Positions 9,289 to 35,639 of a DNA stretch of 64,000 bases are shown here, piece by piece. The notes under the pieces were generated by a model. The model was not told the DNA's origin, did not search any database, and saw only the letters and a list, made by a program, of their open reading frames with translations. A program made the translations under genes and the position numbers. The stretch is taken from NCBI RefSeq assembly GCF_029784135.1, contig NC_073745.1:49115619-49179618 (forward strand), in the 5' to 3' direction. The stretch comes from Toxorhynchites rutilus septentrionalis (lineage: Eukaryota; Arthropoda; Insecta; Diptera; Culicidae). Positions within the stretch are counted from its first letter, which is position 1. Every line of letters starts with the position of its first letter.

Positions 9289-9460
9289 AAAAAACAGGAA
9301 GTGGGTTATATCTATGGTATAACCGCAAGGGTGACGTAGGACTATCGTTGATTTAGAGATCATTTGTTTGAAGTTGAATCTAAATCCATCCTGAATGAAT
9401 GAATAAATAAATATTTGGGTGACTTCAAAAACGAGAGTGTTACGTTGGAAACTCAAGGTT

Positions 9461-9680
9461 TTATGCATCCAATATTGGATACAAAAAACCTTGTTCTGAA
9501 GAATAATCTTCAGAAGCTTTCCTGCTAACTGCACTTGATTGACAAATCACAAAACCAAATGTATGTGGTCGCAGTATTATATGGATAGAAAACATTAAAA
9601 TAAACTCGCTTGAATGTAATTTTCAATTCCAAGGGGAACTGGCAGATTATTTTTCAGCAACGATCATTTTTTTTCCAGGT
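9461..9680 (+). repeat. Internal direct repeat r1 of the 5.24 kb unit
   Basis: About 215 bp running from ATGCATCCAATATTGGATAC to GGCAGATTATTTTTCAGCAA. Repeated at 10313-10530 (r2) and 13808-14020 (r3) within the same unit, with a partial copy at 13683-13745. Contains the palindrome ATCCAATATTGGAT. Position in copies B and C is +12,454 and about +21,093. Confidence 0.85.
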
Positions 9681-9771
9681 TTCCTCTCGATAACCAGCAA
9701 ACGAAAAGAGTTGCGCGCGTGTATGTGTGTGTGTGGCGGCTGCTTCTATGTCTTCCCGAGAAACCGTATTT

Positions 9772-9811
9772 CGATGCTGATACTCTCTTGGTCACGAGAG
9801 TATCAGCATCG
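9772..9811. repeat. Perfect 16-bp hairpin
   Basis: CGATGCTGATACTCTC, 8-nt loop TTGGTCAC, then GAGAGTATCAGCATCG. Preserved in copies B (22226-22265) and C (30865-30904). Confidence 0.9.
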
Positions 9812-9940
9812 GCTTTTCTGCGCTCCCTCACAGTTAAAACAAACTGATTGCATTTCAGGTCAGGTCAGGCCAGGTAATGAATCCCTCGATCCCTCGCCGT
9901 TCAGCTCGTTCAGTAACGATGTTGTCTTGTCGATGTCCTC

Positions 9941-10099
9941 AGGCGTCGTGCACAAATTACGTAACGCTAAAAATCCGAATTTTGAACCACCTCTCCCCCC
10001 CCCCTTCGTAACGCAATTTCCTATCTCTAATAAACAGAAAGTAACGCAACATCTACCCCCTCCCCCCTTATCGCGTTACGTAATTTGTGCACGACGCCT
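9941..10099. mobile_element. Small MITE with 27-bp perfect terminal inverted repeats
   Basis: AGGCGTCGTGCACAAATTAC at the left end and its exact complement GTAATTTGTGCACGACGCCT at the right; pairing extends inward to 27 bp. 159 bp in total, with C-rich runs in the loop. The one-base length difference of copy C lies in this C-run. No target duplication is obvious. Confidence 0.8.
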
Positions 10100-10312
10100 C
10101 ACGAAAAATGAATCGGTTTCACCACCAGAATATCATTTCAGTATGCTTTTCGTGCGTGATTGAATCGAGAGAAGGTGTGGTTTACGATGGCAATTTGGAA
10201 GGCAAACTAGAGGAGAATGAACTCTCTGAGTATGAAAATTTCGGCGACTGAGCAATAATCGATTGAAAATTATATAATTTTCGAGATACGAAACATTTTC
10301 CTTTTTTCATGT

Positions 10313-10530
10313 TATGCATCCAATATTGGATACGAAAATATCCTACTGATGGGAAAGAATAATCTTCAGAAGCTTTCCAGCTAATTACACTTGATTGAAA
10401 AATTACGAAATCAAATGTATTTGGTCGCTGTGTTCGCCATATAATTAGAAAACATTAAAATAAACTCTTTCGCATGGATGTATTCTTCAATTCCCAGGGA
10501 ACTGGCAGATTATTTTTCAGCAACGATTAG
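10313..10530 (+). repeat. Internal direct repeat r2 of the 5.24 kb unit
   Basis: Second copy of the 215-bp internal repeat (TGTTATGCATCCAATATTGG to TATTTTTCAGCAACGAT), slightly diverged from r1. Confidence 0.85.
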
Positions 10531-10633
10531 ATCTTTCCGGAATTTTCTCGATGCTGTATGGCATCCAAACGAAAATTCTCGTTTCAGTTTGGCCTGCAAA
10601 AAACTTTTCTAAACTCTAATCCATCAAATTTGG

Positions 10634-11105
10634 AGCCCTGAAAAGGGCCGATGATTATATGCTAAGCTAATATAGCACCCTCTCCTTGGATTCGATGGGC
10701 CAGCTGAATGTCCTTGGGCATGATGTGACGCGTTTTGCGTGGATAGCACACAAATTTGTATCTTCGAATAAGCCTCCTGCAGCGTCATAACCGCGGAACT
10801 TTGGAAGCGCAAGTCGGTTTTGAAGTCCTGAGCAATTCCACGATCCAAAAGCTGCAAAGGTAGCTTGCGGATCAGCAATTCGGTCGACTTCCGATAGCGA
10901 TGAATTTCACGCAAAGTTCCCGGTCGATAGCGATGTGGCTTTTTCACCTATCCTGCGGCTGGTGCGCTTATCCGAGCTGCTTTCGTGTGCCTTACCACTG
11001 AAAGACTAACTATCTATCTGCTTGGTCCCAAACAAACGAGTCGTCACGGTGCGAGAGTAGAGTAAGAAATGAACGAAAGCAAAGGAAGCGTCATTTTATA
11101 AACCA
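10634..11105 (-). pseudogene. Histone H3 pseudogene 1 of copy A, with TATA box and 3' stem-loop
   Basis: Minus strand. Coding similarity runs from ACCAAGCAGA (11017-11026, H3 Thr3-Lys-Gln-Thr) to a stop at 10662-10664. Readable H3 blocks: [38 protein letters not shown], then in another frame [14 protein letters not shown] and in a third MPKDIQLA. Lesions: no start codon, a deletion in the KQLATKAARK region, loss of about 20 nt after QEA, and one missing base in VTIMP. A TTTATAAAA box lies at 11094-11102. At 10634-10649 the transcript-sense GGCCCTTTTCAGGGCT is the canonical metazoan histone mRNA stem-loop. It is intronless and includes both promoter and 3' end, so a gene-level rather than processed-mRNA origin is likely. 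Non-functional as H3. Confidence 0.95.
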
Positions 11106-11186
11106 TAAAAGTATAGAATCTAAACCCCACCCTTATTATATTCGTTGCTTAACCTGAGAGAGAAACGAATAACATCGAAGTAAGTA

Positions 11187-11415
11187 TACAGTAATGTATT
11201 TGAATCCGGACACTTTGCGTTACATTTAATACCATACCGCAGCCACAACATTTCCTGCATGTTGAATTAATGCGATTGATAAGTAACTATCAAGAAACTA
11301 TCAGTAACTATATTAGTAACTATTAATCGCATAAATTCAACATGAAAAAAATGTTATGGCTGTGGTATGATATTGAATTTAATGCAAAGTGTCCGGATTC
11401 AAAAGCATTACTGTA
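11187..11415. mobile_element. TA-flanked MITE with about 65-bp inverted repeats (Tc1/mariner type)
   Basis: Both ends read TACAGTAATG inward, followed by TTTGAATCCGGACACTTTGC on each side. Pairing continues (with mismatches) through CATACC.CAGCCA.AACATTT. 229 bp including TA at the edges, no coding capacity. Present at the same place in copies B and C. Confidence 0.85.
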
Positions 11416-12087
11416 AAAAAGAGTTAACTCGACTGAAATTTTTTCGGTTCGGCCTGCAAAAACGAAATTAAGAGCCCCCGCCGACTGCAGACTGACTTGT
11501 CGACCGATAGTTCGGTCGGCTTCTTAATCAGTACGGAGAAAAAAAGTCTGTAGTGTACAGCATAATGCATAGACGTAAGTATGAGCTTCCCCATCTCACA
11601 TTCCAATAAGATTAATGGGTTTCCAAGTGGGCGCGCTACATACGGATACGAATGATTTCAATAACCTGTTTTCGAAGCTATCATTAAGCTATTGAAACAA
11701 TTTTTCGACTCAATAAATAGCAATCATATAACTCTTGGACATTGTATCTTTTGTATGAAATGATTATCATACTGTTCCGTTGATCCGAAGCAGAATGAAT
11801 CACGCTTAAAGAAGGAATGGATTTTTTCTTGGAATTTAGTCAGCAGAAATAATGCCCTTTCCCAACAATTAAAAACGACAAACGGTAAACAGTTTCATCA
11901 AAGTGATTTCTTCGATATGGGGATATATTCACTACATCATGTCATATATTTCATATTTTTCATTATAAAATCCATATCCATGGCACCTATCGGTATCGAA
12001 TTATCATCGACACCACGATTTTCGCTAAATGCTCCTTTCAGTTCGGCCTGTAAAAAACTTTTCTGAACTCTAATCCATCAAATTTGG

Positions 12088-12558
12088 AGCCCTGAAAAGG
12101 GCTGTTGATTATATGCTAAGCTAATATAGCACGCTCTCCTCGAATACGATGGGCCAGCTGGATGTCCTTGGGCATGATGTGACGCGTTTTGCATGGATAG
12201 CACACAAATTGGTATCTTCTAATAAGCCTCCTGCAGCGTCATAACCGCGGAACTTTGGAAGCGCAAGTCGGTTTTGAAGTCCTGAGCAATTCCACGAACC
12301 AAATGCTGCAAAGGTAGCTTGCGGATCAGCAATTCGGTCGACTTCTGATAGCGACGAATTTCATGCGAAGTTCCCGGTCGATAGCGATGTGGCTTCTTCA
12401 CGCTTCCTGCAGCTGATACGCTTATCCGAGCTGCTTTCGTGGTGCCTTACTACCGAAAGACTAACGAGCTGTCTGCTTAGTCCCGATGAAACGAGTCCTC
12501 ACGGTGCGAGAGTAGAGTAAGAAATGAACAAAAGCAAGGGAAGTGTCATTTTATAAAA
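12088..12558 (-). pseudogene. Histone H3 pseudogene 2 of copy A, with TATA box and 3' stem-loop
   Basis: Minus strand, left arm of the palindrome. Blocks [26 protein letters not shown] and [13 protein letters not shown] are readable; ACTAAGCAGAC (12470-12480) marks the N-terminal TKQT. It shares with the other two copies the loss after QEA, the missing base in VTIMP and the substitution Ala to Thr in VMTLQEA, so all three descend from one already broken gene. It also has a private stop after QEAY. TATA at 12549-12557. Stem-loop at 12088-12103 reads AGCCCTTTTCAGGGCT in transcript sense: the first G is changed to A, which restores full pairing compared with the G-U pair of the other copies. Confidence 0.95.
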
Positions 12559-12660
12559 CAGAAAAGAATCGAATGTAAACCCCACCCTCTTTATTGTATA
12601 AGCTTACTGTATACTCACGAATATAATAAGGGTGGGATTTAGATTCTATACTTTTATGGT

Positions 12661-13129
12661 TTATAAAATGACGCTTCCTTTGCTTTGGTTCATTTCTTAC
12701 TCTACTCTCGCACCGTGAGGACTCGAGCTCGTTAGTCTTTCGCAGACAGCTCGTTAGTCATTCGGTGGTAAGGCACACGAAGTCAGCTCGGATAAGCGCA
12801 CCAGTAGCAGGATAGGTGGAGAAGCCACATCGCTATCGACCGTGAACTTCGCATGAAATTCGTCGCTATCAGATATCGACCGAATTGCTGATCCGCAAGC
12901 TACCTTTGCAGCATTTGGTTCGTGGAATTGCTCAGGACTTCAAAACCGACTTGCGCTTCCAAAGTTCCGCGGTTATGACGCTGCAGGAGGCTTATTCGAA
13001 GATACCAATTTGTGTGCTATCCATGCAAAACGCGTCACATCATGCCCAAGGACATCCAGCTGGCCCATCGTATCCGAGGAGAGCGTGCTATATTAGCTTA
13101 GCATATAATCAACGGCCCTTTTCAGGGCT
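12661..13129 (+). pseudogene. Histone H3 pseudogene 3 of copy A, with TATA box and 3' stem-loop
   Basis: Plus strand, right arm of the palindrome. TATAAAA at 12662-12668; GCAGACAGCTCGTTAGTC near 12742 matches the H3 QTARKS region, followed by GGTAAGGCAC (GKA). Blocks [43 protein letters not shown], then in frame three [14 protein letters not shown] and a stop at 13099-13101. The C-terminus here is closest to functional H3. Stem-loop GGCCCTTTTCAGGGCT at 13114-13129, 12 nt after the stop. Same shared deletions as pseudogenes 1 and 2, plus an extra break after the second residue block. Cannot encode H3. Confidence 0.95.
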
Positions 13130-13807
13130 CCAAATTTGAGGGATTAGAGTACAGAAAAGTTTTTTACAGGCCGAACTGAAAGGAGCATTTAGCGAAAATC
13201 GTGGTTTCGATAATAATTCGTTACCGATAGGTGCCATGGATATGGATTTCCTTATGAAGAATATGAAATGCATGACATGATGTAGTGAATATATCCGAAG
13301 AAATCACTTTGGTGAAACTGCATTATAAAATTATTTGTGTACGAATGCCGCAATCGATAGTCGACTCTAATTTGCGCTGGGTAATTTCCTCGGAGGACTC
13401 GATTCCTCCTTTGAGCATTAATAATCTCTTTCTGGCAAAACGATGTGGTATGAATCACATTATTTGAATGATAGAATGAAGAAGTTTTCTGCCAATTTCC
13501 TTCAACCTCCAAACGTATCTTTCTCCCGTTTGTCGTTTTCGCGTTCGCTAATCCTTTCTCACAACACCCATTTCTAGTTTGAGAAATTGTTGAGTAAACA
13601 TTGTTTGCCAGTGCGCGTAGAGCGGGAATTCCTAAAGATTCATTGCACCTCTAATAAATTGCCGAAAGACGTGGTCTTACGTTGATCGCACTTGATTGAA
13701 AATATCCAAAACGAAATGTATTTGGTCGAAGCATTATATGAGTAGAAAGCAAATAATCGCTCGAAAATGACTTGATTTTCGTGATGTGAAACATTTTCCG
13801 TTTTTCA

Positions 13808-14020
13808 TGTTATGCATCCAATATTGGATACGAAAATTTCCACTGATGGGGAAAAAATATTCAGAAGCTTTCCTGTTAATTGCGATTGATTGAAAAATAA
13901 CAAAACCAAATGTATTTGGTTGCAGTGTTATATGGATAGAAAACATTAAAATAAACTATTTCGCATGAATGTATTTTTCAATTCCCAGGGGAACTGGCAG
14001 ATTATTTTTCAGCAACGATG
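13808..14020 (+). repeat. Internal direct repeat r3 of the 5.24 kb unit
   Basis: Third copy of the 215-bp internal repeat. As at r1 it is followed by a CGCGCGTG/(TG)n tract and GGCGGCTGCT (14036-14075), so the repeat with its downstream tract is duplicated at both ends of the unit. Confidence 0.85.
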
Positions 14021-14530
14021 ATAGCAACGAGAATTCCGCGCGTGTATGTGTGTGTGTGTGTGTGGCGGCTGCTCCGATGTTTCAAGCGGAACCGTGGCAT
14101 CACTCTCCTCCTGATGGATTCCCTTTTGGCCTTAGGTGCACAAACAGGCTCTTGGTGACACCGTTCATCAGCGCATTCATGATAAACGAAATTAGCTTCA
14201 CAACAACAGCGACAACATGCTCCAATCGCTGTTCAATCATAACTGAGTGGGTTTACGTGCGCCGCTCGCTTATATACCGATTTTTTATTTCAATAGCCTG
14301 TTTTGAAAGCAATTTTAAGACTATTGAAACAAGTTTTTGGATGAAAAAGTAACAAGTATATGACGCGTAGACATTTTATCTTTCAAATGAAGTGTTTATC
14401 ATACCATTTCGTTCAGTTGTTTAAGAGCTATTAACGCTCAAAATCTCGGTCTCCAGCGTAACGCTTTCGTTCTCGAAACTTTGGTTTTACACCCCGGTAT
14501 AGAAATGAAAGACGTAGTCCTACGTCAAAA

Positions 14531-15400
14531 AAAGTTTAAAGCATCAATATTTAGTGTGGCCTCTTGAAGCTTCAATAACCCGTTGAAGATGTTTGGGCTA
14601 TCGACCAAGTTCTGGAGATGCTGAGGGTCGATTTCGTTCTATGCCTACTGGAGAGCCGCGAAATAAGTGTCCTTATTAGTGACACCATCTTTCACCACTT
14701 TCTCAATCGGGTTGAGATCAAGACTTTGTGATGATCTTTCAAGGGGTTTTATTTGGCATGAACGAAAATAGGCTTTGGTTTTCTGAGCAGTATGCTTCGG
14801 GTCGTTGATTTGTTGGAAAACGAAGCTGATTTCGTGAATTCGAACCAGATTCCAACATCAGCCCAGGAAAAGCATTCCCACACCATTACATTGCCTCCTC
14901 CGTGCTTGACTATGACCTGCAAATCACATTCCTGCAATCCTTCATCATCCTTCCGCCAAATTCTTTCGCGCCGTTTCTTGTTGATAAGCTTAAATTCCGA
15001 TTCGTCGCTCCAAAGTACTTTTTCCAAAAGTCTTTGGGTTTGTTAACATCTTTCCGGGCCAATTCCAACCGAACTTCTCTGCAATCTTTCGCTGTGAATT
15101 CTGCTGCAAATGTCAGGATCAACAAGATCTCGTTTCGATATTCAAACAGTTTTTGTTTACCTTTTTGAACATGTAATGGTTGTGTATGCCTTATGTGGTC
15201 TAAATCCTGCTGTCATGATTTTCTGATCAATTCGACAACATTAGTTTTCTTGGGCGATTCAAATCAAATCAAGACAATTATCTTCAGTTCTTTCCTCTTG
15301 TAGAAATCACCGATTGACTTCTCTCTTCAACCGTAAATATATTCCATTCTCAGGGTACAGAAAATTCCAACCACACAATCTCGAAAATGGAGACGCCCGT
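14531..15400 (-). pseudogene. Tc1-like transposase remnant
   Basis: Minus strand. Readable blocks: AKDCREVRLELARKDVNKPKD, WKKVLWSDESEFKLINKKRR (first catalytic Asp block WSDESEF), CDLQVIVKHGGGNVMVWECF, then in other frames LDLNPIE (third block) and VIEASRGHTKY-stop at 14544-14546. Multiple frameshifts and internal stops. The N-terminal third (15130-15400) is barely recognisable. The 3' terminal inverted repeat is missing because copy A of the 5.24 kb unit lies immediately beyond the stop codon. Confidence 0.85.
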
Positions 15401-17967
15401 TTCAGGACCATTTCGATGGAGGCGCGTGTTTGATTATACAGAATAAAGATTAATGGCTGTTAACCCACAAACTCCAGGAGCGGATAAAAGATGCCTCCTC
15501 CTCGGAAGCAACTTTCAGTTCATGCAAATTTTTTCAACATCATTAATTTTCCGATCAAATTCAATGAATAGGAACGATCTCAATCGCAAACCGCAACAAC
15601 ATTGACGGGTGCGCTCGCTTGAAGTTATCCCCCCGGGTGTTTCGCAGCTGACTTCGGCGTTTTGCAACCGGCGTATCGAATAGATAATATTTTTATTCAC
15701 GCTGGCACGCAGCTGACAGTGGTGACCTTTTGGACTGACCCAAAATGACGCTCTATCGTTGTCTGTGCGAAGATTAGAAGATGCTGACGGTTCGAGTCCC
15801 GAGGGTGAATTTCAGCGAAACGGGTGGGGTGGAAGCGTGCGAACGCAAAATTTAAATTTATTTCGTTATAAAACCGACCCTTACCCGGTGCTTGTCACGC
15901 CGTCTGTGGGCGGCATGCCTTTGCCTAGTTTCTCTTTCTCGGGCACGAGGAACATGAAACGGACGGACGGACGGACGGACGGAGGTTCTTTGTGATTAAG
16001 GTTTCACATTTTATGGACATACAGAATGTGGCCGTTATGTCATTTCACATTTGCTCCTGCCTGTTGTCTTTTGACTATCTTTTCAAAGCACCTTAATCAA
16101 CTTTGACTTCCACTGTGTGCGTGTGTCGGGTGTAAATATCGTGCGGATGATCTTTATTCTAAATATTCGTGGAATAATTATGAAGTTAGATTTCTTGGTA
16201 GATATCTTGCATGTCATATAAATAGCTATTGAAATAATTTCTTCTGAACCTATCTTAAATATTGTCGGTTTTCAAACATTATCTATTTTTTTATGTTCCG
16301 ATAGAATGGAAAGAAATTTTCCATGCTTCGCAGCTATATTCATATGATGCTTTGGTTCTCTTCAGGCCAAAATCTGGGTTAACGAAAGTTTACGCTTCCC
16401 ATGAATCTAAAATTAGGCCATATCTTTTATCGCGCGCTAAGCTTCATGATCCTGCTGCTGTTGGGTAACTATCGCTACCACCCGCTAATGAACCTGGTAA
16501 TGGAATGAAAGATATGCTAAACTCACACAGTTTTTTTTCAACCATTAATAAAAAAGTGTTTACTCGAGCTTTCCCTGTGGCTTGCCGTATCGCTGGATAA
16601 TGTTAAGCTAGTGGAAGGAAAACGAAAAAAATGAGCCACATACACACAGCCGCTCAAACACCCCCAAATATATTATTAAAACTTCACGCTTCCAAGAGTG
16701 TGTGGGAGGAAGGAGCTAGAGAGAGAGAAACAAATATGGTGAATGTTTCATAACCGACTCGGCAATGTTCCTGCAACGAATTTTGTGAGAAACATCGTTT
16801 CTGTAATGGACCTCGAGTACGGCTCAGTACCAGCCGCTGATGGACTAAAGTTTACTGTGGAAATTAAGCAAACCAACTTCGGCGTTTATTTGTTGTAGCT
16901 TTTTCTGCATCTATTTGTTTCATTTCGGTTAGTGTTAGCTTCTAGTCGAACGTCAAGGTCACGGTGGGAGTGGAAATGTGTTCATTCCGCTGCAGAGACA
17001 ACGGCCAACTAATTACATCTCGAGGGGTGGTGGTTCAGTGATTTTTCATTCCATCTCTGCTGGCGCTCAGTTTCGCTGAGTTAAAATACAAATTCGTGGT
17101 GATATCGCAAGTTTTTGATTTTCGATTGACTGCTCAATTCGGAGGAACGGAAAGCATTCTCTCACTCCGGGAGCTTTGGTCGCCAGTCTTCTCGTTGGTT
17201 AGCGGCCAGAAAAGCACTTTGAAACGCTATTTTCACTCGGGTATTTCGCAATCTTTAGTTTTTTTTGCCCTGTGTAATCTACTATCCTGCGTTGCGGAGA
17301 TGAGAAAAACGAGAGAATCATAATGTAATTAAAATGTTTAACAAAAGTAGTTATACGAAGCTGTTGCCGCGTTTTGTGTGTGTGGGAATTCTTCCGAAAT
17401 AGTGAAATAGTAATTAAGGAAACTATAGTTGTTTGAAGCTCGTTAGAACAAATGGGAAAATGTTCATTTTTAGCGGCAGTACCCGAGTGTTTCGAAACTC
17501 GTTCAACAAGCAGTGAGAAAGCCCTAATAACATCGGTGTGAATAGCCACTGAAGCGAATCTTCTGTGCCGTCGTTTAACGGCGGTGGAAAACTTTTCGTA
17601 AAGGAAGGTGATCCATAACGTTGGGGATTCGAGAAGTGCGCTGATTATTGTCCAGGGAATAACTATTCAATAATCATTTCCCGAAGTAAACTCAGTTCAT
17701 GGAATGATGAGACATAACACGATCGATAAAGTTACGCCGGTTATTATTTCCTTTTTCAATAATTTCGATTAGTTCAACAACTTGAAGAATCAAATTTGTA
17801 GATCTTTCTTGTAGAAAATTAAAAATATTTACAACATGAAAACCAGTATGCAAACCAGTGCAAACTGGATTTGTTGCGGACACTGCATACAACTAACTCT
17901 GCATACTAACTCTCTCATAACCTTAAAAAGGCATTCTTAAAAAGTTTGGTATTAGCAGGCTACACAA
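15401..17967. other. Unassigned DNA, possibly unique host sequence
   Basis: Less AT-rich than the surroundings and without recognised transposon sequence. Contains a (GGAC)n tract at 15959-15983 and a short GAGAGAGAG run near 16717. Several frames of 60-116 codons exist on both strands but none shows a domain, and codon context looks random. Confidence 0.4.
15959..15983. repeat. (GGAC)n microsatellite
   Basis: Six uninterrupted GGAC units. Confidence 0.9.
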
Positions 17968-20960: not shown

Positions 20961-20969
20961 ATTTAGAAA

Positions 20970-21742: not shown

Positions 21743-23087
21743 AAAAAACAGGAAGTGGGTTATATCTATGGTATAACCGCAAGGGTGACGTAGGACTATC
21801 GTTGATTTAGAGATCATTTGTTTGAAGTTGAATCTAAATCCATCCTGAATGAATGAATAAATAAATATTTGGGTGACTTCAAAAACGAGAGTGTTACGTT
21901 GGAAACTCAAGGTTTTATGCATCCAATATTGGATACAAAAAACCTTGTTCTGAAGAATAATCTTCAGAAGCTTTCCTGCTAACTGCACTTGATTGACAAA
22001 TCACAAAACCAAATGTATGTGGTCGCAGTATTATATGGATAGAAAACATTAAAATAAACTCGCTTGAATGTAATTTTCAATTCCAAGGGGAACTGGCAGA
22101 TTATTTTTCAGCAACGATCATTTTTTTTCCAGGTTTCCTCTCGATAACCAGCAAACGAAAAGAGTTGCGCGCGTGTATGTGTGTGTGTGGCGGCTGCTTC
22201 TATGTCTTCCCGAGAAACCGTATTTCGATGCTGATACTCTCTTGGTCACGAGAGTATCAGCATCGGCTTTTCTGCGCTCCCTCACAGTTAAAACAAACTG
22301 ATTGCATTTCAGGTCAGGTCAGGCCAGGTAATGAATCCCTCGATCCCTCGCCGTTCAGCTCGTTCAGTAACGATGTTGTCTTGTCGATGTCCTCAGGCGT
22401 CGTGCACAAATTACGTAACGCTAAAAATCCGAATTTTGAACCACCTCTCCCCCCCCCCTTCGTAACGCAATTTCCTATCTCTAATAAACAGAAAGTAACG
22501 CAACATCTACCCCCTCCCCCCTTATCGCGTTACGTAATTTGTGCACGACGCCTCACGAAAAATGAATCGGTTTCACCACCAGAATATCATTTCAGTATGC
22601 TTTTCGTGCGTGATTGAATCGAGAGAAGGTGTGGTTTACGATGGCAATTTGGAAGGCAAACTAGAGGAGAATGAACTCTCTGAGTATGAAAATTTCGGCG
22701 ACTGAGCAATAATCGATTGAAAATTATATAATTTTCGAGATACGAAACATTTTCCTTTTTTCATGTTATGCATCCAATATTGGATACGAAAATATCCTAC
22801 TGATGGGAAAGAATAATCTTCAGAAGCTTTCCAGCTAATTACACTTGATTGAAAAATTACGAAATCAAATGTATTTGGTCGCTGTGTTCGCCATATAATT
22901 AGAAAACATTAAAATAAACTCTTTCGCATGGATGTATTCTTCAATTCCCAGGGAACTGGCAGATTATTTTTCAGCAACGATTAGATCTTTCCGGAATTTT
23001 CTCGATGCTGTATGGCATCCAAACGAAAATTCTCGTTTCAGTTTGGCCTGCAAAAAACTTTTCTAAACTCTAATCCATCAAATTTGG

Positions 23088-23559
23088 AGCCCTGAAAAGG
23101 GCCGATGATTATATGCTAAGCTAATATAGCACCCTCTCCTTGGATTCGATGGGCCAGCTGAATGTCCTTGGGCATGATGTGACGCGTTTTGCGTGGATAG
23201 CACACAAATTTGTATCTTCGAATAAGCCTCCTGCAGCGTCATAACCGCGGAACTTTGGAAGCGCAAGTCGGTTTTGAAGTCCTGAGCAATTCCACGATCC
23301 AAAAGCTGCAAAGGTAGCTTGCGGATCAGCAATTCGGTCGACTTCCGATAGCGATGAATTTCACGCAAAGTTCCCGGTCGATAGCGATGTGGCTTTTTCA
23401 CCTATCCTGCGGCTGGTGCGCTTATCCGAGCTGCTTTCGTGTGCCTTACCACTGAAAGACTAACTATCTATCTGCTTGGTCCCAAACAAACGAGTCGTCA
23501 CGGTGCGAGAGTAGAGTAAGAAATGAACGAAAGCAAAGGAAGCGTCATTTTATAAACCA
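23088..23559 (-). pseudogene. Histone H3 pseudogene 1 of copy B
   Basis: Identical arrangement to the copy A gene: stem-loop 23088-23103, stop 23116, N-terminal block 23471-23480, TATA near 23548-23556. Same lesions. Confidence 0.95.
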
Positions 23560-24541
23560 TAAAAGTATAGAATCTAAACCCCACCCTTATTATATTCGTT
23601 GCTTAACCTGAGAGAGAAACGAATAACATCGAAGTAAGTATACAGTAATGTATTTGAATCCGGACACTTTGCGTTACATTTAATACCATACCGCAGCCAC
23701 AACATTTCCTGCATGTTGAATTAATGCGATTGATAAGTAACTATCAAGAAACTATCAGTAACTATATTAGTAACTATTAATCGCATAAATTCAACATGAA
23801 AAAAATGTTATGGCTGTGGTATGATATTGAATTTAATGCAAAGTGTCCGGATTCAAAAGCATTACTGTAAAAAAGAGTTAACTCGACTGAAATTTTTTCG
23901 GTTCGGCCTGCAAAAACGAAATTAAGAGCCCCCGCCGACTGCAGACTGACTTGTCGACCGATAGTTCGGTCGGCTTCTTAATCAGTACGGAGAAAAAAAG
24001 TCTGTAGTGTACAGCATAATGCATAGACGTAAGTATGAGCTTCCCCATCTCACATTCCAATAAGATTAATGGGTTTCCAAGTGGGCGCGCTACATACGGA
24101 TACGAATGATTTCAATAACCTGTTTTCGAAGCTATCATTAAGCTATTGAAACAATTTTTCGACTCAATAAATAGCAATCATATAACTCTTGGACATTGTA
24201 TCTTTTGTATGAAATGATTATCATACTGTTCCGTTGATCCGAAGCAGAATGAATCACGCTTAAAGAAGGAATGGATTTTTTCTTGGAATTTAGTCAGCAG
24301 AAATAATGCCCTTTCCCAACAATTAAAAACGACAAACGGTAAACAGTTTCATCAAAGTGATTTCTTCGATATGGGGATATATTCACTACATCATGTCATA
24401 TATTTCATATTTTTCATTATAAAATCCATATCCATGGCACCTATCGGTATCGAATTATCATCGACACCACGATTTTCGCTAAATGCTCCTTTCAGTTCGG
24501 CCTGTAAAAAACTTTTCTGAACTCTAATCCATCAAATTTGG

Positions 24542-25012
24542 AGCCCTGAAAAGGGCTGTTGATTATATGCTAAGCTAATATAGCACGCTCTCCTCGAATA
24601 CGATGGGCCAGCTGGATGTCCTTGGGCATGATGTGACGCGTTTTGCATGGATAGCACACAAATTGGTATCTTCTAATAAGCCTCCTGCAGCGTCATAACC
24701 GCGGAACTTTGGAAGCGCAAGTCGGTTTTGAAGTCCTGAGCAATTCCACGAACCAAATGCTGCAAAGGTAGCTTGCGGATCAGCAATTCGGTCGACTTCT
24801 GATAGCGACGAATTTCATGCGAAGTTCCCGGTCGATAGCGATGTGGCTTCTTCACGCTTCCTGCAGCTGATACGCTTATCCGAGCTGCTTTCGTGGTGCC
24901 TTACTACCGAAAGACTAACGAGCTGTCTGCTTAGTCCCGATGAAACGAGTCCTCACGGTGCGAGAGTAGAGTAAGAAATGAACAAAAGCAAGGGAAGTGT
25001 CATTTTATAAAA
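24542..25012 (-). pseudogene. Histone H3 pseudogene 2 of copy B
   Basis: Left arm of the palindrome in copy B. Stem-loop 24542-24557 with the A-U restored first pair, coding remains to 24933, TATA 25003-25011. Confidence 0.95.
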
Positions 25013-25114
25013 CAGAAAAGAATCGAATGTAAACCCCACCCTCTTTATTGTATAAGCTTACTGTATACTCACGAATATAATAAGGGTGGGATTTAGATTC
25101 TATACTTTTATGGT

Positions 25115-25583
25115 TTATAAAATGACGCTTCCTTTGCTTTGGTTCATTTCTTACTCTACTCTCGCACCGTGAGGACTCGAGCTCGTTAGTCTTTCGCAGA
25201 CAGCTCGTTAGTCATTCGGTGGTAAGGCACACGAAGTCAGCTCGGATAAGCGCACCAGTAGCAGGATAGGTGGAGAAGCCACATCGCTATCGACCGTGAA
25301 CTTCGCATGAAATTCGTCGCTATCAGATATCGACCGAATTGCTGATCCGCAAGCTACCTTTGCAGCATTTGGTTCGTGGAATTGCTCAGGACTTCAAAAC
25401 CGACTTGCGCTTCCAAAGTTCCGCGGTTATGACGCTGCAGGAGGCTTATTCGAAGATACCAATTTGTGTGCTATCCATGCAAAACGCGTCACATCATGCC
25501 CAAGGACATCCAGCTGGCCCATCGTATCCGAGGAGAGCGTGCTATATTAGCTTAGCATATAATCAACGGCCCTTTTCAGGGCT
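25115..25583 (+). pseudogene. Histone H3 pseudogene 3 of copy B
   Basis: Right arm of the palindrome in copy B. TATAAAA 25116-25122, coding remains about 25196-25555, stem-loop 25568-25583. Confidence 0.95.
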
Positions 25584-26984
25584 CCAAATTTGAGGGATTA
25601 GAGTACAGAAAAGTTTTTTACAGGCCGAACTGAAAGGAGCATTTAGCGAAAATCGTGGTTTCGATAATAATTCGTTACCGATAGGTGCCATGGATATGGA
25701 TTTCCTTATGAAGAATATGAAATGCATGACATGATGTAGTGAATATATCCGAAGAAATCACTTTGGTGAAACTGCATTATAAAATTATTTGTGTACGAAT
25801 GCCGCAATCGATAGTCGACTCTAATTTGCGCTGGGTAATTTCCTCGGAGGACTCGATTCCTCCTTTGAGCATTAATAATCTCTTTCTGGCAAAACGATGT
25901 GGTATGAATCACATTATTTGAATGATAGAATGAAGAAGTTTTCTGCCAATTTCCTTCAACCTCCAAACGTATCTTTCTCCCGTTTGTCGTTTTCGCGTTC
26001 GCTAATCCTTTCTCACAACACCCATTTCTAGTTTGAGAAATTGTTGAGTAAACATTGTTTGCCAGTGCGCGTAGAGCGGGAATTCCTAAAGATTCATTGC
26101 ACCTCTAATAAATTGCCGAAAGACGTGGTCTTACGTTGATCGCACTTGATTGAAAATATCCAAAACGAAATGTATTTGGTCGAAGCATTATATGAGTAGA
26201 AAGCAAATAATCGCTCGAAAATGACTTGATTTTCGTGATGTGAAACATTTTCCGTTTTTCATGTTATGCATCCAATATTGGATACGAAAATTTCCACTGA
26301 TGGGGAAAAAATATTCAGAAGCTTTCCTGTTAATTGCGATTGATTGAAAAATAACAAAACCAAATGTATTTGGTTGCAGTGTTATATGGATAGAAAACAT
26401 TAAAATAAACTATTTCGCATGAATGTATTTTTCAATTCCCAGGGGAACTGGCAGATTATTTTTCAGCAACGATGATAGCAACGAGAATTCCGCGCGTGTA
26501 TGTGTGTGTGTGTGTGTGGCGGCTGCTCCGATGTTTCAAGCGGAACCGTGGCATCACTCTCCTCCTGATGGATTCCCTTTTGGCCTTAGGTGCACAAACA
26601 GGCTCTTGGTGACACCGTTCATCAGCGCATTCATGATAAACGAAATTAGCTTCACAACAACAGCGACAACATGCTCCAATCGCTGTTCAATCATAACTGA
26701 GTGGGTTTACGTGCGCCGCTCGCTTATATACCGATTTTTTATTTCAATAGCCTGTTTTGAAAGCAATTTTAAGACTATTGAAACAAGTTTTTGGATGAAA
26801 AAGTAACAAGTATATGACGCGTAGACATTTTATCTTTCAAATGAAGTGTTTATCATACCATTTCGTTCAGTTGTTTAAGAGCTATTAACGCTCAAAATCT
26901 CGGTCTCCAGCGTAACGCTTTCGTTCTCGAAACTTTGGTTTTACACCCCGGTATAGAAATGAAAGACGTAGTCCTACGTCAAAA

Positions 26985-29900
26985 TAAAATAAAAATATAC
27001 TTTCAACGAAGCAATGAAAGATATAGAATAATGGTTAGTGAAAGTATTATTTTAGAACATGTCAAAAAAAGTCAAATAGAACGTTTTTTGTGACGTAACC
27101 GATATTTAGTTTTTCAATTTGTACAGATTTGTACAATATGTTCCCGAAAGACGTTATCCTACGTCAAAAATAATCATAATGGTCGTAAGTTCCATATTCC
27201 CTCGAATTGTCCAGAGCAGCAAAGTCACGACAAAATGCTACTAAATTCATTTGACATCCGCTACATTTTTATGGTGAATATATGGAATATGGTTACCCAC
27301 TTAACCCCTAACTTTATTATGTCCACAGCCCAAACGAATCACGGAATACTTCAATTAGCATTCATTTGTCTGTTGACTCACCCGAAGTTAATTGTGGGAG
27401 AAACCCCGAGCAAACGGACCATGCTACGGACCAAACAACAACTGAATTCGCCTCGCCTCCCCATCATACGTAACTCGTAATAACATAATGTTCTACAATG
27501 TGATTATTAAGACGCAGTTCCCAGCCTTACTTCGATTTAAAGTCACCCGGTGGTTGAAATTGGAGTTCCTTCATCCGTCCCCTCTCGTAAACAAAACTGA
27601 GGTGTAGAAGGTCAAACTGTGGTCTGGTCTGTGGGTGGACGCAATAATTGCCACCAAATGCGAGTGAATAAATATGAAAATGTTTCCCTTTCCCAGTGTC
27701 GAAAGTGTCGCAAATTGTGAGGCGCTCCGAGAGACTGTGAACGGCTTTCCGTCGCGAGGGGTAGGGCTTTGATTGATGTGCGGCTGTCGAGAGGTCTGGG
27801 CAACAAACCGGGCGACGTAAAACCGGCTGGCTACCCGAAGTCATCAGTCCAAATTGTGGCAAACAGGCAGGCGGAGTATGGTAATGAATAATTTTCGTCA
27901 ATTACATGCTCGAATGGCGCGTTCGTTTTGGGGCCTGTTCGAAAAGTCATGGGAGGGAGGGGAAAATACTCCGTAAAAGTCGGCATGGGAACCTATGAAT
28001 AATTTTACTATGAACTGCCGAAAATAGAGAAGAGGGTGTTTGGTTCGAGGTTCAGTGTTTCACATAAATGGAACTACTGCGAAATGGTTCTATTTTTCTG
28101 CGCTGCAATTTTACTCGGGTGAATTGATTGGCCAATTTTACTGCCAATTCTGTTTGGAACATTGCGGGCGAATTGGATGTATCAATTCGAGCACGCAGCA
28201 GATGCAGCTTTGGGCTGGAAACAAATGGGTTGCCATAACCAGGCCATTAGGGGGCGGTCTGGGTGTTTGTTTTATTCGCCACCTAAAAACTTAGCTCTGG
28301 GTGAGAAATGAACCGAACTGGTTCACCGCTACATCAAATGGTATATTGGTATTTGCTGCTGTTTACTGAGTCAGAGTTCAATGAAGGTTTGCTCTCAGCA
28401 GAGAAAGATTATTTTTCCCGTTATTGCAGATGAATATGTGATGTGAGTGAATGAATGAGAATGTTGTAGTAGTGATTCTTGTTCAGTAGAACAAGCACTC
28501 CTAGAGTTCTTTATGCGAGAAAGTGTCCTTATTATACAAATATGTAAGTATTTTAAGGCGAGAAATCAATAGACAGCTGTCTTTGTAGGTGTCTACAGAT
28601 CGTCCTAGGGCGTGACTGACAGGTACAAAAATGAGTAGTTAACAGAATATACCTCGTACTTCGCGTTCATTTCAGAAAAAAGATAATGTGAATATGGAGG
28701 TTTATACGGGAACTCCAATTAACTGGGTTAAAGAGTGATAGAGACCATAACCAACCAGATTCCAGCAAGGCGAGCCCCATGTCGCACCTTGATTCTCACC
28801 AGATGTGGCTTCAGTTCATGTTCAGGAAGAATAACCGTCATCAAGTCCAGATTTTTATCCGTTGGATTTCATAGTTTTGCGCATGATAGCCAAGCTATGC
28901 TCCAGATGAACCTGAAGTACAACAAAACGAACATTCACGAACGTACCTGGTGACAATAATACAAATGTGAATAATACAGAAATTTAGTGATTCACTGAAT
29001 CGAATGAAAATATTATTGCCATCAGAATACCATTCAAATCTTGAATCTGAAATGTAAGCTTGCATCAAACACAGTACAATCAATACAGTTAAGTTGATAG
29101 TATAATTTTAATTCTGCGCTTAATGCCACTCCAAAGCAATAACAAAACAATAACACTCTAGGACTAGAAGTGGCAACGGTGAACTCAGGTGCTGGTTTAC
29201 AGAGAACTGAATGTAGTGCTTTCAGTGTTTGGTAAAAGAACTCTGAATTTCATTCCAGTTTCATTTTCCCATTTTCCTTCCCAATGGGTGGTGCGCTTTC
29301 TTCTTTCAAATTGAAAACCTCTGTGAAAATTATCATTGCAAAGCGAAAGGTCCGACGACTGAAATTAAATGCATAAAACAACATCGCACAGTTCTGGGCT
29401 GTGGCAGGCACAGAAATAGATTCTAAGGACCATGTTTATTATTTCCCCGTTACACAATTTTGATGAAGGACAATAACATCGACGAATGCCACTGGGTGTA
29501 CAAAACAAATCAAATAAAACATTCGACAGGCGAATCAGTGCGGGTGAATGAGGGTGAAGATATAAGACTTTCTAGGCGAATGGGATTGCTTTTATTGGGA
29601 TTGTTCACAAGAAATGACAAATGTCAACAAAATGCTATCGTAAATGTCAATCCCGTTACCTCACATAAAATCTGTATTGATTGATTTTCTTCTGCATGCA
29701 GATCATCTCGGGAAGCTGGAGTTGGGATTGAGAGAAAGGCGGAAATTTACGGCACAATCACAATCTTCAAAAGGAATGTTTCTAGTCATTCTTCCGATTA
29801 TGCGTCCTCAACAGGAATTGAGCAGGGGATATTTTTATTTTAATCGGAACAAACCTGTATGGTAGCAATGATTTGGAATGGATTTTATTACCGAATTGTG

Positions 29901-30381
29901 CTTAATGTTTTTACAAACAAGTGAGCATGAATGAAAATACGTATCAAATCTAAGAGATTAAATCTTTTTGACTGCGGCGTTGAGTACGTATCATTAGTAG
30001 CAATTCTGCATAGCAAACAGTAGCGGAAAACACGAGCCTATTCAAACGGGAGATTATCAGCTTACCGATCTTTCGGGCAGCGGGAATAAGTCGAGGAATT
30101 TGTTTTGTTGCAGAGTGCTGCAAAATCAAATGCTGGAAAATATAGGAACCCTATGAGTGTTACAGATTCGTTCTAATCCAAAATAAATACTCTAAGTAAT
30201 GATATGGCAAAAACACCATTCTTGGTCAATAGCAACTCACTTTGAAAGCATTAGGAAACACCAGAATTAAGCTCTACATGATGAAGCTTGAATGGAAGTT
30301 TGAGAGCAAATTTCTACTGATATGCTTCGTTAATTTTATCAATCAAAGCGTCTTCTTCCAGCATTAATACATTTTTATTTT
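26985..30381. other. Spacer between copies B and C, possibly unique host DNA
   Basis: 27146-27180 carries GAAAGACGTTATCCTACGTC, a second diverged right-end motif of the H3 unit family, about 190 bp beyond copy B. From 27185 the sequence is less AT-rich, with no recognised transposon. Frames of up to 124 codons (27901-27527, minus) show no domain. I see no promoter, RNA gene or splice architecture that I could defend. Confidence 0.4.
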
Positions 30382-31725
30382 AAAAAACAGGAAGTGGGTT
30401 ATATCTATAGTATAACCGCAAGGGTGACGTAGGACTATCGTTGATTTAGAGATCATTTGTTTGAAGTTGAATCTAAATCCATCCTGAATGAATGAATAAA
30501 TAAATATTTGGGTGACTTCAAAAACGAGAGTGTTACGTTGGAGACTCAAGGTTTTATGCATCCAATATTGGATACAAAAAACCTTGTTCTGAAGAATAAT
30601 CTTCAGAAGCTTTCCTGCTAACTGCACTTGATTGACAAATCACAAAACCAAATGTATGTGGTCGCAGTATTATATGGATAGAAAACATTAAAATAAACTC
30701 GCTTGAATGTAATTTTCAATTCCAAGGGGAACTGGCAGATTATTTTTCAGCAACGATCATTTTTTTTCCAGGTTTCCTCTCGATAACCAGCAAACGAAAA
30801 GAGTTGCGCGCGTGTATGTGTGTGTGTGGCGGCTGCTTCTATGTCTTCCCGAGAAACCGTATTTCGATGCTGATACTCTCTTGGTCACGAGAGTATCAGC
30901 ATCGGCTTTTCTGCGCTCCCTCACAGTTAAAACAAACTGATTGCATTTCAGGTCAGGTCAGGCCAGGTAATGAATCCCTCGATCCCTCGCCGTTCAGCTC
31001 GTTCAGTAACGATGTTGTCTTGTCGATGTCCTCAGGCGTCGTGCACAAATTACGTAACGCTAAAAATCCGAATTTTGAACCACCTCTCCCCCCCCCTTCG
31101 TAACGCAATTTCCTATCTCTAATAAACAGAAAGTAACGCAACATCTACCCCCTCCCCCCTTATCGCGTTACGTAATTTGTGCACGACGCCTCACGAAAAA
31201 TGAATCGGTTTCACCACCAGAATATCATTTCAGTATGCTTTTCGTGCGTGATTGAATCGAGAGAAGGTGTGGTTTACGATGGCAATTTGGAAGGCAAACT
31301 AGAGGAGAATGAACTCTCTGAGTATGAAAATTTCGGCGACTGAGCAATAATCGATTGAAAATTATATAATTTTCGCGATACGAAACATTTTCCGTTTTTC
31401 ATGTTATGCATCCAATATTGGATACGAAAATATCCTACTGATGGGAAAGAATAATCTTCAGAAGCTTTCCAGCTAATTACACTTGATTGAAAAATTACGA
31501 AATCAAATGTATTTGGTCGCTGTGTTCGCCATATAATTAGAAAACATTAAAATAAACTCTTTCGCATGGATGTATTCTTCAATTCCCAGGGAACTGGCAG
31601 ATTATTTTTCAGCAACGATTAGATCTTTCCGGAATTTTCTCGATGCTGTATGGCATCCAAACGAAAATTCTCGTTTCAGTTTGGCCTGCAAAAAACTTTT
31701 CTAAACTCTAATCCATCAAATTTGG

Positions 31726-32197
31726 AGCCCTGAAAAGGGCCGATGATTATATGCTAAGCTAATATAGCACCCTCTCCTTGGATTCGATGGGCCAGCTGAA
31801 TGTCCTTGGGCATGATGTGACGCGTTTTGCGTGGATAGCACACAAATTTGTATCTTCGAATAAGCCTCCTGCAGCGTCATAACCGCGGAACTTTGGAAGC
31901 GCAAGTCGGTTTTGAAGTCCTGAGCAATTCCACGATCCAAAAGCTGCAAAGGTAGCTTGCGGATCAGCAATTCGGTCGACTTCCGATAGCGATGAATTTC
32001 ACGCAAAGTTCCCGGTCGATAGCGATGTGGCTTTTTCACCTATCCTGCGGCTGGTGCGCTTATCCGAGCTGCTTTCGTGTGCCTTACCACTGAAAGACTA
32101 ACTATCTATCTGCTTGGTCCCAAACAAACGAGTCGTCACGGTGCGAGAGTAGAGTAAGAAATGAACGAAAGCAAAGGAAGCGTCATTTTATAAACCA
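31726..32197 (-). pseudogene. Histone H3 pseudogene 1 of copy C
   Basis: As in copies A and B: stem-loop 31726-31741, stop 31754, N-terminal block 32109-32118, TATA near 32186-32194. Confidence 0.95.
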
Positions 32198-33179
32198 TAA
32201 AAGTATAGAATCTAAACCCCACCCTTATTATATTCGTTGCTTAACCTGAGAGAGAAACGAATAACATCGAAGTAAGTATACAGTAATGTATTTGAATCCG
32301 GACACTTTGCGTTACATTTAATACCATACCGCAGCCACAACATTTCCTGCATGTTGAATTAATGCGATTGATAAGTAACTATCAAGAAACTATCAGTAAC
32401 TATATTAGTAACTATTAATCGCATAAATTCAACATGAAAAAAATGTTATGGCTGTGGTATGATATTGAATGTAATGCAAAGTGTCCGGATTCAAAAGCAT
32501 TACTGTAAAAAAGAGTTAACTCGACTGAAATTTTTTCGGTTCGGCCTGCAAAAACGAAATTAAGAGCCCCCGCCGACTGCAGACTGACTTGTCGACCGAT
32601 AGTTCGGTCGGCTTCTTAATCAGTACGGAGAAAAAAAGTCTGTAGTGTACAGCATAATGCATAGACGTAAGTATGAGCTTCCCCATCTCACATTCCAATA
32701 AGATTAATGGGTTTCCAAGTGGGCGCGCTACATACGGATACGAATGATTTCAATAACCTGTTTTCGAAGCTATCATTAAGCTATTGAAACAATTTTTCGA
32801 CTCAATAAATAGCAATCATATAACTCTTGGACATTGTATCTTTTGTATGAAATGATTATCATACTGTTCCGTTGATCCGAAGCAGAATGAATCACGCTTA
32901 AAGAAGGAATGGATTTTTTCTTGGAATTTAGTCAGCAGAAATAATGCCCTTTCCCAACAATTAAAAACGACAAACGGTAAACAGTTTCATCAAAGTGATT
33001 TCTTCGATATGGGGATATATTCACTACATCATGTCATATATTTCATATTTTTCATTATAAAATCCATATCCATAGCACCTATCGGTATCGAATTATCATC
33101 GACACCACGATTTTCGCTAAATGCTCCTTTCAGTTCGGCCTGTAAAAAACTTTTCTGAACTCTAATCCATCAAATTTGG

Positions 33180-33650
33180 AGCCCTGAAAAGGGCTGTTGA
33201 TTATATGCTAAGCTAATATAGCACGCTCTCCTCGAATACGATGGGCCAGCTGGATGTCCTTGGGCATGATGTGACGCGTTTTGCATGGATAGCACACAAA
33301 TTGGTATCTTCTAATAAGCCTCCTGCAGCGTCATAACCGCGGAACTTTGGAAGCGCAAGTCGGTTTTGAAGTCCTGAGCAATTCCACGAACCAAATGCTG
33401 CAAAGGTAGCTTGCGGATCAGCAATTCGGTCGACTTCTGATAGCGACGAATTTCATGCGAAGTTCCCGGTCGATAGCGATGTGGCTTCTTCACGCTTCCT
33501 GCAGCTGATACGCTTATCCGAGCTGCTTTCGTGGTGCCTTACTACCGAAAGACTAACGAGCTGTCTGCTTAGTCCCGATGAAACGAGTCCTCACGGTGCG
33601 AGAGTAGAGTAAGAAATGAACGAAAGCAAGGGAAGTGTCATTTTATAAAA
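33180..33650 (-). pseudogene. Histone H3 pseudogene 2 of copy C
   Basis: Left arm of the palindrome in copy C, stem-loop 33180-33195 fully paired, coding remains to 33571, TATA 33641-33649. Confidence 0.95.
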
Positions 33651-33752
33651 CAGAAAAGAATCGAATGTAAACCCCACCCTCTTTATTGTATAAGCTTACT
33701 GTATACTCACGAATATAATAAGGGTGGGATTTAGATTCTATACTTTTATGGT

Positions 33753-34221
33753 TTATAAAATGACGCTTCCTTTGCTTTGGTTCATTTCTTACTCTACTCT
33801 CGCACCGTGAGGACTCGAGCTCGTTAGTCTTTCGCAGACAGCTCGTTAGTCATTCGGTGGTAAGGCACACGAAGTCAGCTCGGATAAGCGCACCAGTAGC
33901 AGGATAGGTGGAGAAGCCACATCGCTATCGACCGTGAACTTCGCATGAAATTCGTCGCTATCAGATATCGACCGAATTGCTGATCCGCAAGCTACCTTTG
34001 CAGCATTTGGTTCGTGGAATAGCTCAGGACTTCAAAACCGACTTGCGCTTCCAAAGTTCCGCGGTTATGACGCTGCAGGAGGCTTATTCGAAGATACCAA
34101 TTTGTGTGCTATCCATGCAAAACGCGTCACATCATGCCCAAGGACATCCAGCTGGCCCATCGTATCCGAGGAGAGCGTGCTATATTAGCTTAGCATATAA
34201 TCAACGGCCCTTTTCAGGGCT
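33753..34221 (+). pseudogene. Histone H3 pseudogene 3 of copy C
   Basis: Right arm of the palindrome in copy C. TATAAAA 33754-33760, coding remains 33834-34193, stem-loop 34206-34221. A private base change lies at 34021 (AGCTCAGG for TGCTCAGG). Confidence 0.95.
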
Positions 34222-35639
34222 CCAAATTTGAGGGATTAGAGTACAGAAAAGTTTTTTACAGGCCGAACTGAAAGGAGCATTTAGCGAAAATCGTGGTTTC
34301 GATAATAATTCGTTACCGATAGGTGCCATGGATATGGATTTCCTTATGAAGAATATGAAATGCATGACATGATGTAGTGAATATATCCGAAGAAATCACT
34401 TTGGTGAAACTGCATTATAAAATTATTTGTGTACGAATGCCGCAATCGATAGTCGACTCTAATTTGCGCTGGGTAATTTCCTCGGAGGACTCGATTCCTC
34501 CTTTGAGCATTAATAATCTCTTTCTGGCAAAACGATGTGGTATGAATCACATTATTTGAATGATAGAATGAAGAAGTTTTCTGCCAATTTCCTTCAACCT
34601 CCAAACGTATCTTTCTCCCGTTTGTCGTTTTCGCGTTCGCTAATCCTTTCTCACAACACCCATTTCTAGTTTGAGAAATTGTTGAGTAAACATTGTTTGC
34701 CAGTGCGCGTAGAGCGGGAATTCCTAAAGATTCATTGCACCTCTAATAAATTGCCGAAAGACGTGGTCTTACGTTGATCGCACTTGATTGAAAAAATCCA
34801 AAATGAAATGTGTTTGATCGCAGCATTATATGAGTAGAAAGCAAATAATCGCTCGAAAATGACTTGATTTTCGCGATGTGAAACATTTTCCGTTTTTCAT
34901 GTTATGCATGCAATATTGGATACGAAAATTTCCACTGATGGGGAAAAAATATTCAGAAGCTTTCCTGTTAATTGCGATTGATTGAAAAATAACAAAACCA
35001 AATGTATTTGGTTGCAGTGTTATATGGATAGAAAACATTAAAATAAACTATTTCGCATGAATGTATTTTTCAATTCCCAGGGGAACTGGCAGATTATTTT
35101 TCAGCAACGATGATAGCAACGAGAATTCCGCGCGTGTATGTGTGTGTGTGTGTGTGGCGGCTGCTCCGATGTTTCAAGCGGAACCGTGGCATCACTCTCC
35201 TCCTGATGGATTCCCTTTTGGCCTTAGGTGCACAAACAGGCTCTTGGTGACACCGTTCATCAGCGCATTCATGATAAACGAAATTAGCTTCACAACAACA
35301 GCGACAACATGCTCCAATCGCTGTTCAATCATAACTGAGTGGGTTTACGTGCGCCGCTCGCTTATATACCGATTTTTTATTTCAATAGCCTGTTTTGAAA
35401 GCAATTTTAAGACTATTGAAACAAGTTTTTGGATGAAAAAGTAACAAGTATATGACGCGTAGACATTTTATCTTTCAAATGAAGTGTTTATCATACCATT
35501 TCGTTCAGTTGTTTAAGAGCTATTAACGCTCAAAATCTCGGTCTCCAGCGTAACGCTTTCGTTCTCGAAACTTTGGTTTTACACCCCGGTATAGAAATGA
35601 AAGACGTAGTCCTACGTCAAAAATGTATTTTGACAAAAT

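What the first reader, a model, noticed from the sequence alone, without database searches (positions are those of the whole stretch)
9289..35622. Three near-identical 5.24 kb repeat units, each carrying three histone H3 pseudogenes
Units at 9289-14530, 21743-26984 and 30382-35622 share exact ends and contents while flanks differ. Each holds three H3-derived copies, nine in 26 kb. H3 blocks ([34 protein letters not shown]) and the histone 3' stem-loop are unmistakable. I know of no named mosquito element that carries histone H3. This looks like a non-autonomous mobile element that has captured a core histone gene and amplified it.
Basis: partly seen in the sequence, partly recalled or inferred. 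Interest (0 to 1): 0.92.

Follow-up and report, generated by a model that had tools for sequence, protein, structure and literature searches.

The report
Jumping DNA carrying broken histone genes
Three almost identical 5.2-kb jumping-DNA units, of a kind thought to copy itself by rolling-circle replication, each carry three broken copies of the histone H3 gene; one published mosquito element of this kind carries fragments of other histone genes, so this looks like a new example of a rare but known event.

Summary
Units at 9289-14530 and 21743-26984 are identical over 5242 bp; the third (30382-35622) differs by 15 substitutions and one 1-bp indel; flanks are unrelated. Each holds three H3 pseudogenes, two of them facing each other in a 1.43-kb inverted repeat (arms about 0.7 kb).

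The unit is best read as a non-autonomous Helentron (HINE, DINE-1-like). On the minus strand it starts TTTT plus a palindromic subterminal repeat; near its 3' end come an inverted copy of that repeat (43 bp in), a stem-loop (15 bp in) and T6. No target-site duplication is visible, and the six-frame scan of unit 1 shows only histone. An element at 2311-2389 shares the 3' end (48 of 60 bases).

All three H3 blocks share deletions at four sites and a stop at codon 10: one dead H3 ancestor was multiplied inside the element before it moved.

Precedent exists: Helentron-Cq-32A of Culex quinquefasciatus carries broken H4 and H1 fragments (PMC4067079), and a hAT element amplified H3 in fungi (PMC6710886). 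Apparently new are H3 as cargo of such an element and the H3 hairpin. Host species, genome-wide copies, empty sites and an autonomous partner could not be tested: the genome server did not answer nine requests.

The parts
9289..14530 (-). Unit 1: complete HINE, read 5'->3' on the minus strand (5' end at 14530, 3' end at 9289)
21743..26984 (-). Unit 2, identical to unit 1 over 5242 bp
30382..35622 (-). Unit 3, 99.7% identical (15 substitutions, one 1-bp deletion)
14511..14530 (-). 5' terminus of unit 1: TTTT (14527-14530) then palindromic subterminal repeat GACGTAGGACTACGTC (14511-14526)
9332..9344 (+). 3' subterminal inverted repeat of unit 1 (13 bp TGACGTAGGACTA, identical to the 5' one), 43 bp from the 3' terminus
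9304..9324 (-). 3' stem-loop of unit 1 (7-bp stem GGTTATA/TATAACC), 15 bp from the 3' terminus, followed by CACTTCCTG and T6; unit 3 differs by one base in the loop
10573..11145 (-). H3 pseudogene a of unit 1 (copies: 23027-23599, 31665-32237)
12027..12594 (-). H3 pseudogene b of unit 1 (copies: 24481-25048, 33119-33686)
12617..13190 (+). H3 pseudogene c of unit 1, divergent to b (copies: 25071-25644, 33709-34282)
11890..13320 (.). 1431-bp inverted repeat made of H3b, H3c and their 3' flanks (arms about 0.7 kb; 90.6% match to its own reverse complement); as one RNA strand it folds into a near-continuous hairpin, MFE -1195 kcal/mol
10609..10654 (-). Histone 3' stem-loop remnant of H3a (others: 12063-12108 -, 13109-13154 +); all below Rfam's gathering score
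9461..9667 (+). First copy of a non-histone internal repeat (others 10254-10527 and 13752-14022 in unit 1, 82-86% alike)
2311..2389 (+). 3' end of a second, divergent element of the same terminal family (48 of 60 bases identical over the last 60 bp, same stem, same T6 end)
27150..27170 (-). Possible 5' end of a further relative (17-bp subterminal motif with 2 mismatches, starting with five Ts)

Best explanation
The units are copies of one non-autonomous Helentron (HINE) that took up a piece of genomic DNA holding a histone H3 gene with its promoter side and its 3' stem-loop. Shown here: the termini, the unrelated flanks, one dead H3 ancestor shared by all three H3 blocks, and the near-identity of the units. 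Inferred: the H3 block was duplicated inside the element, once in inverted orientation, with later exchange between blocks; the finished 5.24-kb element was then copied to three nearby sites by Rep/helicase/endonuclease supplied by an autonomous Helentron elsewhere, by rolling-circle replication into T-rich targets without target-site duplication. The H3 copies encode no histone and are most likely passengers.
For: Termini fall within the published HINE layout: 5' subterminal repeat 3-4 nt from the end (published 2-4), palindromic (16 bp; published 12-15), 13 bp identical at the two ends (at least 11 needed for one family), 3' one 43 bp from the end (38-60), stem-loop 15 bp from the end (8-35), Ts at both ends. 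Flanks unrelated. Independent element at 2311-2389 ends at the same base with 48 of 60 identity, exactly the published subfamily threshold of 80%. Nothing above Pfam cut-off but histone in six frames of unit 1. Lesions common to all three H3 blocks: 16-17 nt at codon 17, 6 nt in all within codons 46-50, 22 nt at codon 96, 1 nt at codon 119, stop at codon 10, and by that alignment no start codon. Homology among H3 blocks extends upstream through a TATA-like box (12662-12668 in H3c) and downstream through the stem-loop, so DNA rather than an mRNA copy was probably taken. Culex precedent of histone capture by a Helentron.
Against: No empty site was found (window only) and no autonomous partner was seen; the genome could not be searched. 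Only three copies, all in 26 kb and all in one orientation. The T-runs are constant (T4 and T6) in the three units, whereas the paper describes 2-5 Ts that sometimes vary between Culex copies. 5' flanks are 37-57% T but 3' flanks only 10-27% T in 30 bp. The 3' copy of the subterminal repeat is not itself a clean palindrome. Folding energies of the terminal structures alone are weak: 18, 10 and 41 of 200 shuffles fold as well for the unit's 3' end, its 5' end and the 2311-2389 relative. Units 1 and 2 being identical could partly be gene conversion or an assembly effect.
Confidence: 0.85

Rival explanations
1. Local segmental duplication of a decayed histone locus, not a mobile element.
For: All three units lie within 26 kb in one orientation.
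Against: Sharp identical ends with unrelated flanks on both sides; structured termini; a separate element sharing one terminus at 2311-2389.
Confidence: 0.06
2. A different class of non-autonomous element (terminal-inverted-repeat transposon or canonical Helitron) that captured H3.
For: Subterminal inverted repeats exist; capture of H3 by a hAT element is known in fungi.
Against: The inverted repeats are subterminal and asymmetric, with the hairpin beside the end at one side only; no target-site duplication is visible next to the three units; ends are not 5' TC / 3' CTRR (recalled), and insertion between A and T does not fit all three flanks.
Confidence: 0.07
3. The H3 inverted repeat is functional: read-through transcription gives a long double-stranded RNA whose siRNAs act on H3 mRNA or on the element itself.
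For: The 1431-nt stretch folds as a near-continuous hairpin (no shuffle control is given above 1000 bases); identical in units 1 and 2 and nearly so in unit 3.
Against: No expression data. The H3 promoter remnants point outward from the centre, so the hairpin needs a promoter outside the repeat. Conservation among units is explained by recent copying alone. In Aedes aegypti, gene-derived endo-siRNAs were found to have limited effect on gene expression, and that paper cites reduced, not raised, histone abundance in an Ago2 mutant.
Confidence: 0.08
4. Three independent captures of different H3 genes.
For: Histone genes are multi-copy, so repeated capture is possible (established knowledge).
Against: Deletions at four sites and a stop codon are common to all three blocks; a mosaic pattern suggests exchange between blocks.
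Confidence: 0.03

Closest known systems
Helentron-Cq-32A of Culex quinquefasciatus (Thomas, Vadnagara and Pritham 2014, PMC4067079)
   Same: Rolling-circle element with palindromic subterminal repeats, 3' stem-loop and T-runs; carries histone gene fragments with stops, frameshifts and indels; eight copies with the fragments reported
   Different: Its cargo is H4 and H1 (H15) fragments in a Helentron; here H3, three blocks, two of them as a long inverted repeat, in an element without Rep/helicase.
HINE / DINE-1 family elements (same paper)
   Same: Layout and spacing of termini, no transposition genes, no visible target-site duplication
   Different: The seven mite families (21 subfamilies) in that paper held no protein-coding gene fragment; this one carries a host gene
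H3-carrying hAT element of Pseudocercospora fijiensis and related fungi (Dhillon et al. 2019, PMC6710886)
   Same: Histone H3 captured by a DNA element and amplified as dead copies
   Different: Fungi, hAT class, captured as transcript or retrocopy, hundreds of copies inactivated by RIP

Membership tests
HINE (non-autonomous Helentron) | 12-15 bp palindromic subterminal inverted repeats, 2-4 nt from the 5' end and 38-60 bp from the 3' end | tested here: met
   5' GACGTAGGACTACGTC (16 bp) after TTTT; 13 bp shared by both ends, 43 bp from the 3' end; the 3' copy is a less perfect palindrome (criteria)
HINE (non-autonomous Helentron) | 5-10 bp palindrome 8-35 bp from the 3' end | tested here: met
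   7-bp stem, 15 bp from the end in all three units; same stem in the 2311-2389 relative
HINE (non-autonomous Helentron) | Insertion in TT without target-site duplication | tested here: inconclusive
   No duplication visible at the three units, but target Ts cannot be told from the element's own Ts and no empty site was found in the window
HINE (non-autonomous Helentron) | Boundary Ts 2-5, sometimes varying between copies (Culex Helentrons) | tested here: not met
   T4 and T6, constant in all three units (description). The paper gives this as a description, not as its classification rule
HINE (non-autonomous Helentron) | Autonomous Helentron with the same ends in the genome | not testable with these tools
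   Own-genome search not answered in nine tries
Helentron (autonomous) | Rep/helicase/endonuclease protein | tested here: not met
   Six-frame Pfam scan of unit 1 gives only Histone above cut-off
Canonical Helitron | 5' TC, 3' CTRR, insertion between A and T | tested here: not met
   Ends are TTTTGACG and CTGTTTTTT; A|T does not fit all three flanks; TC/CTRR recalled, A|T insertion also
TIR DNA transposon such as hAT | Terminal inverted repeats and fixed-length target-site duplication | tested here: not met
   Inverted repeats are subterminal; no duplication seen in the printed flanks
Replication-dependent histone H3 gene | Intact 136-codon frame | tested here: not met
   Deletions and at least one stop in 3 of 3 blocks of unit 1; 96 of 119, 101 of 117 and 98 of 119 aligned codons match H3

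The most novel reading that the evidence does not exclude
The element has turned a core histone gene into a mobile long-hairpin RNA source: the H3b/H3c inverted repeat would give Dicer-2 siRNAs matching H3 mRNA, so a rolling-circle element could tune host H3 supply at the time it replicates in S phase.
Probability: 0.06. Interest if true: 0.85.

Novelty: new member of a known kind. Interest (0 to 1): 0.45.

Why it matters
It is a further case of histone genes captured by a Helentron-type element, the earlier published one being in Culex, so histone capture by this class may recur. Two fully identical 5.24-kb copies suggest very recent movement (unless gene conversion or assembly made them so), which makes the host a place to look for active Helentrons and for how they take up DNA. 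Repeat and gene annotation pipelines may also misread such copies as histone genes.

Tried and rejected
Other histones: tblastn with H4, H2A, H2B and an H1 globular domain gave nothing better than E 1.5 in the window, so no H4 or H1 piece like that of Culex was seen. tRNA scan: none. Exact terminal or internal motifs in viral contigs: 0 matches in three scans; in genome contigs 0 in one scan; unit 1 against phage records: no match. These collections hold no insect genomes as such, so the zeros say little. Motif strings in the paper library: 0 papers. A reverse-transcriptase fragment at 48089-48715 was searched to name the host: 46 hits, at most 54% identity among those covering 40% or more of the query; the only organism names shown are a moth and a spider, which does not name the species. 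Joined flanks of each unit against the window with units masked: no empty site in 3 of 3. Morabine grasshopper paper PMC7754599 (passages only): histone genes there are tandem arrays, nothing on capture in those passages. Segmental-duplication and TIR-transposon readings were rejected for the reasons given among the rivals.

miRNA families matched 11215-11386 and, more weakly, 12504-12714, all far below their gathering scores; these are inverted repeats (I5 and the centre of the H3 repeat), not a miRNA claim.
Full report
OBSERVATION. Units 1 and 2 match base for base over 5242 bp; unit 3 has 15 substitutions and one 1-bp deletion. Homology stops at the same base on both sides in all three, and 1-kb flanks compared in six pairings gave one 20-bp hit at E up to 0.01. 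Each unit has three H3-like blocks; in unit 1 the main tblastn pieces score 104-113 bits, against at most 22.7 bits in 100 mononucleotide shuffles.

TERMINI. Read on the minus strand, the unit begins TTTT-GACGTAGGACTACGTC, a palindrome apart from its two central bases, and ends with an inverted copy of the 13 bp TGACGTAGGACTA, a stem-loop GGTTATA/TATAACC, CACTTCCTG and T6. The 3' repeat lies 43 bp and the stem-loop 15 bp from the end. Thomas, Vadnagara and Pritham (PMC4067079; I read the abstract, parts 1 and 2 of the three parts of the Results, the gene-capture section and the Discussion, and saw passages) give for HINEs in a mite: 12-15 bp palindromic subterminal repeats about 2-4 nt from the 5' and 38-60 bp from the 3' end, a palindrome 8-35 bp from the 3' end, T-rich targets and no target-site modification. 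For Culex they describe similar structure. The unit fits, except that its T-runs do not vary between copies, its 3' run is one T longer than the 2-5 Ts given for Culex, and the 3' flanks are not T-rich (10-27% T in 30 bp; 5' flanks 37-57%). The folding energy of these short ends is weak by itself: 18, 10 and 41 of 200 shuffles fold as well for the unit's 3' end, its 5' end and the relative's 3' end.

RELATIVES IN THE WINDOW. At 2311-2389 another element has the same 3' end: 48 of 60 bases are identical, the stem is unchanged, and homology ends with the same six Ts. No other part of the unit was matched there at E 1e-5. A 5'-like repeat with two mismatches stands at 27150-27166. The terminus is therefore a module used by more than one element, which a segmental duplication would not give.

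THE H3 CARGO. All three lack 16-17 nt at codon 17, 6 nt in all within codons 46-50, 22 nt at codon 96 and 1 nt at codon 119, and share a stop at codon 10; by that alignment none has the start codon. They therefore descend from one dead ancestor. H3b and H3c form a 1431-bp inverted repeat that matches its own reverse complement at 90.6%. Block c follows block a at its 5' side and block b further on. Of 64 two-against-one sites, 19 unite a and c, 26 unite b and c, and 19 unite a and b; on the first 45, with the 19 a-b sites left out, the best break is after alignment column 200 (p 0.0007 in 20,000 permutations). This suggests exchange between blocks inside the element. The blocks are also alike upstream of the coding part, where TATAAAA stands about 60 bp before codon 1 of H3c, and downstream, where RF00032 matches weakly at all three (21-23 bits, below the gathering score of 34). 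This points to capture of genomic DNA rather than of a processed transcript, unlike the fungal hAT case (PMC6710886: abstract and section 7 read).

CODING CAPACITY. A six-frame Pfam scan of unit 1 found Histone and nothing else above cut-off. By this the unit cannot move itself and needs an outside partner. None was seen, but only 10 of the 59 window ORFs of 95 aa or more were scanned on their own, and the genome could not be reached.

NOVELTY. Eight searches of the paper library were made: Helentron with histone (15 of 17 papers listed), H3 pseudogenes with mosquito elements (20 of 216), Helitron with histone and mosquito (24 of 24), Aedes with histone genes and Helitron (15 of 47), two on terminal and internal motifs (0 papers), and two on hairpin and small RNAs (4 of 4 and 8 of 9). 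The listings showed no H3-bearing animal Helentron; I opened four papers (PMC4067079, PMC6710886, PMC7754599, PMC12076837), none of them whole. The library is limited to open licences. Histone capture by a Helentron itself is published for Culex (H4 and H1).

FUNCTION. The simplest reading is passenger DNA. The H3b/H3c repeat would fold as RNA into a near-continuous hairpin (-1195 kcal/mol), so an RNA-interference role is possible but untested. In Aedes aegypti gene-derived endo-siRNAs had limited effect on gene expression (PMC12076837, section 9 and passages).

Noticed in passing
11187-11415 (and the same place in units 2 and 3): Inverted repeat with 95-nt arms 86% complementary, ending in CAGTAATG-like termini; looks like a small MITE nested in the element, or part of it.
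   Followed up: partly
9936-10104 (and units 2, 3): Short inverted repeat with 37-nt arms, 89% complementary, around GGCGTCGTGCACAAATTACGTAACGC; probably another nested MITE.
   Followed up: no
37572-37624: 53-bp match (81%) to the unit's internal non-histone repeat, outside any unit.
   Followed up: no
47724-49904 (-): Broken non-LTR retrotransposon with reverse transcriptase and endonuclease domains.
   Followed up: partly
59460-60057: Array of about 54 copies of an 11-bp unit GATTCCATCTG, 66% matches.
   Followed up: no
53487-54584: 1.1-kb foldback: the stretch matches its own reverse complement at 68%.
   Followed up: no
5938-6316 and 38687-39065: 379-bp inverted pair, 93% identical, on either side of the region that holds the units.
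   Followed up: no
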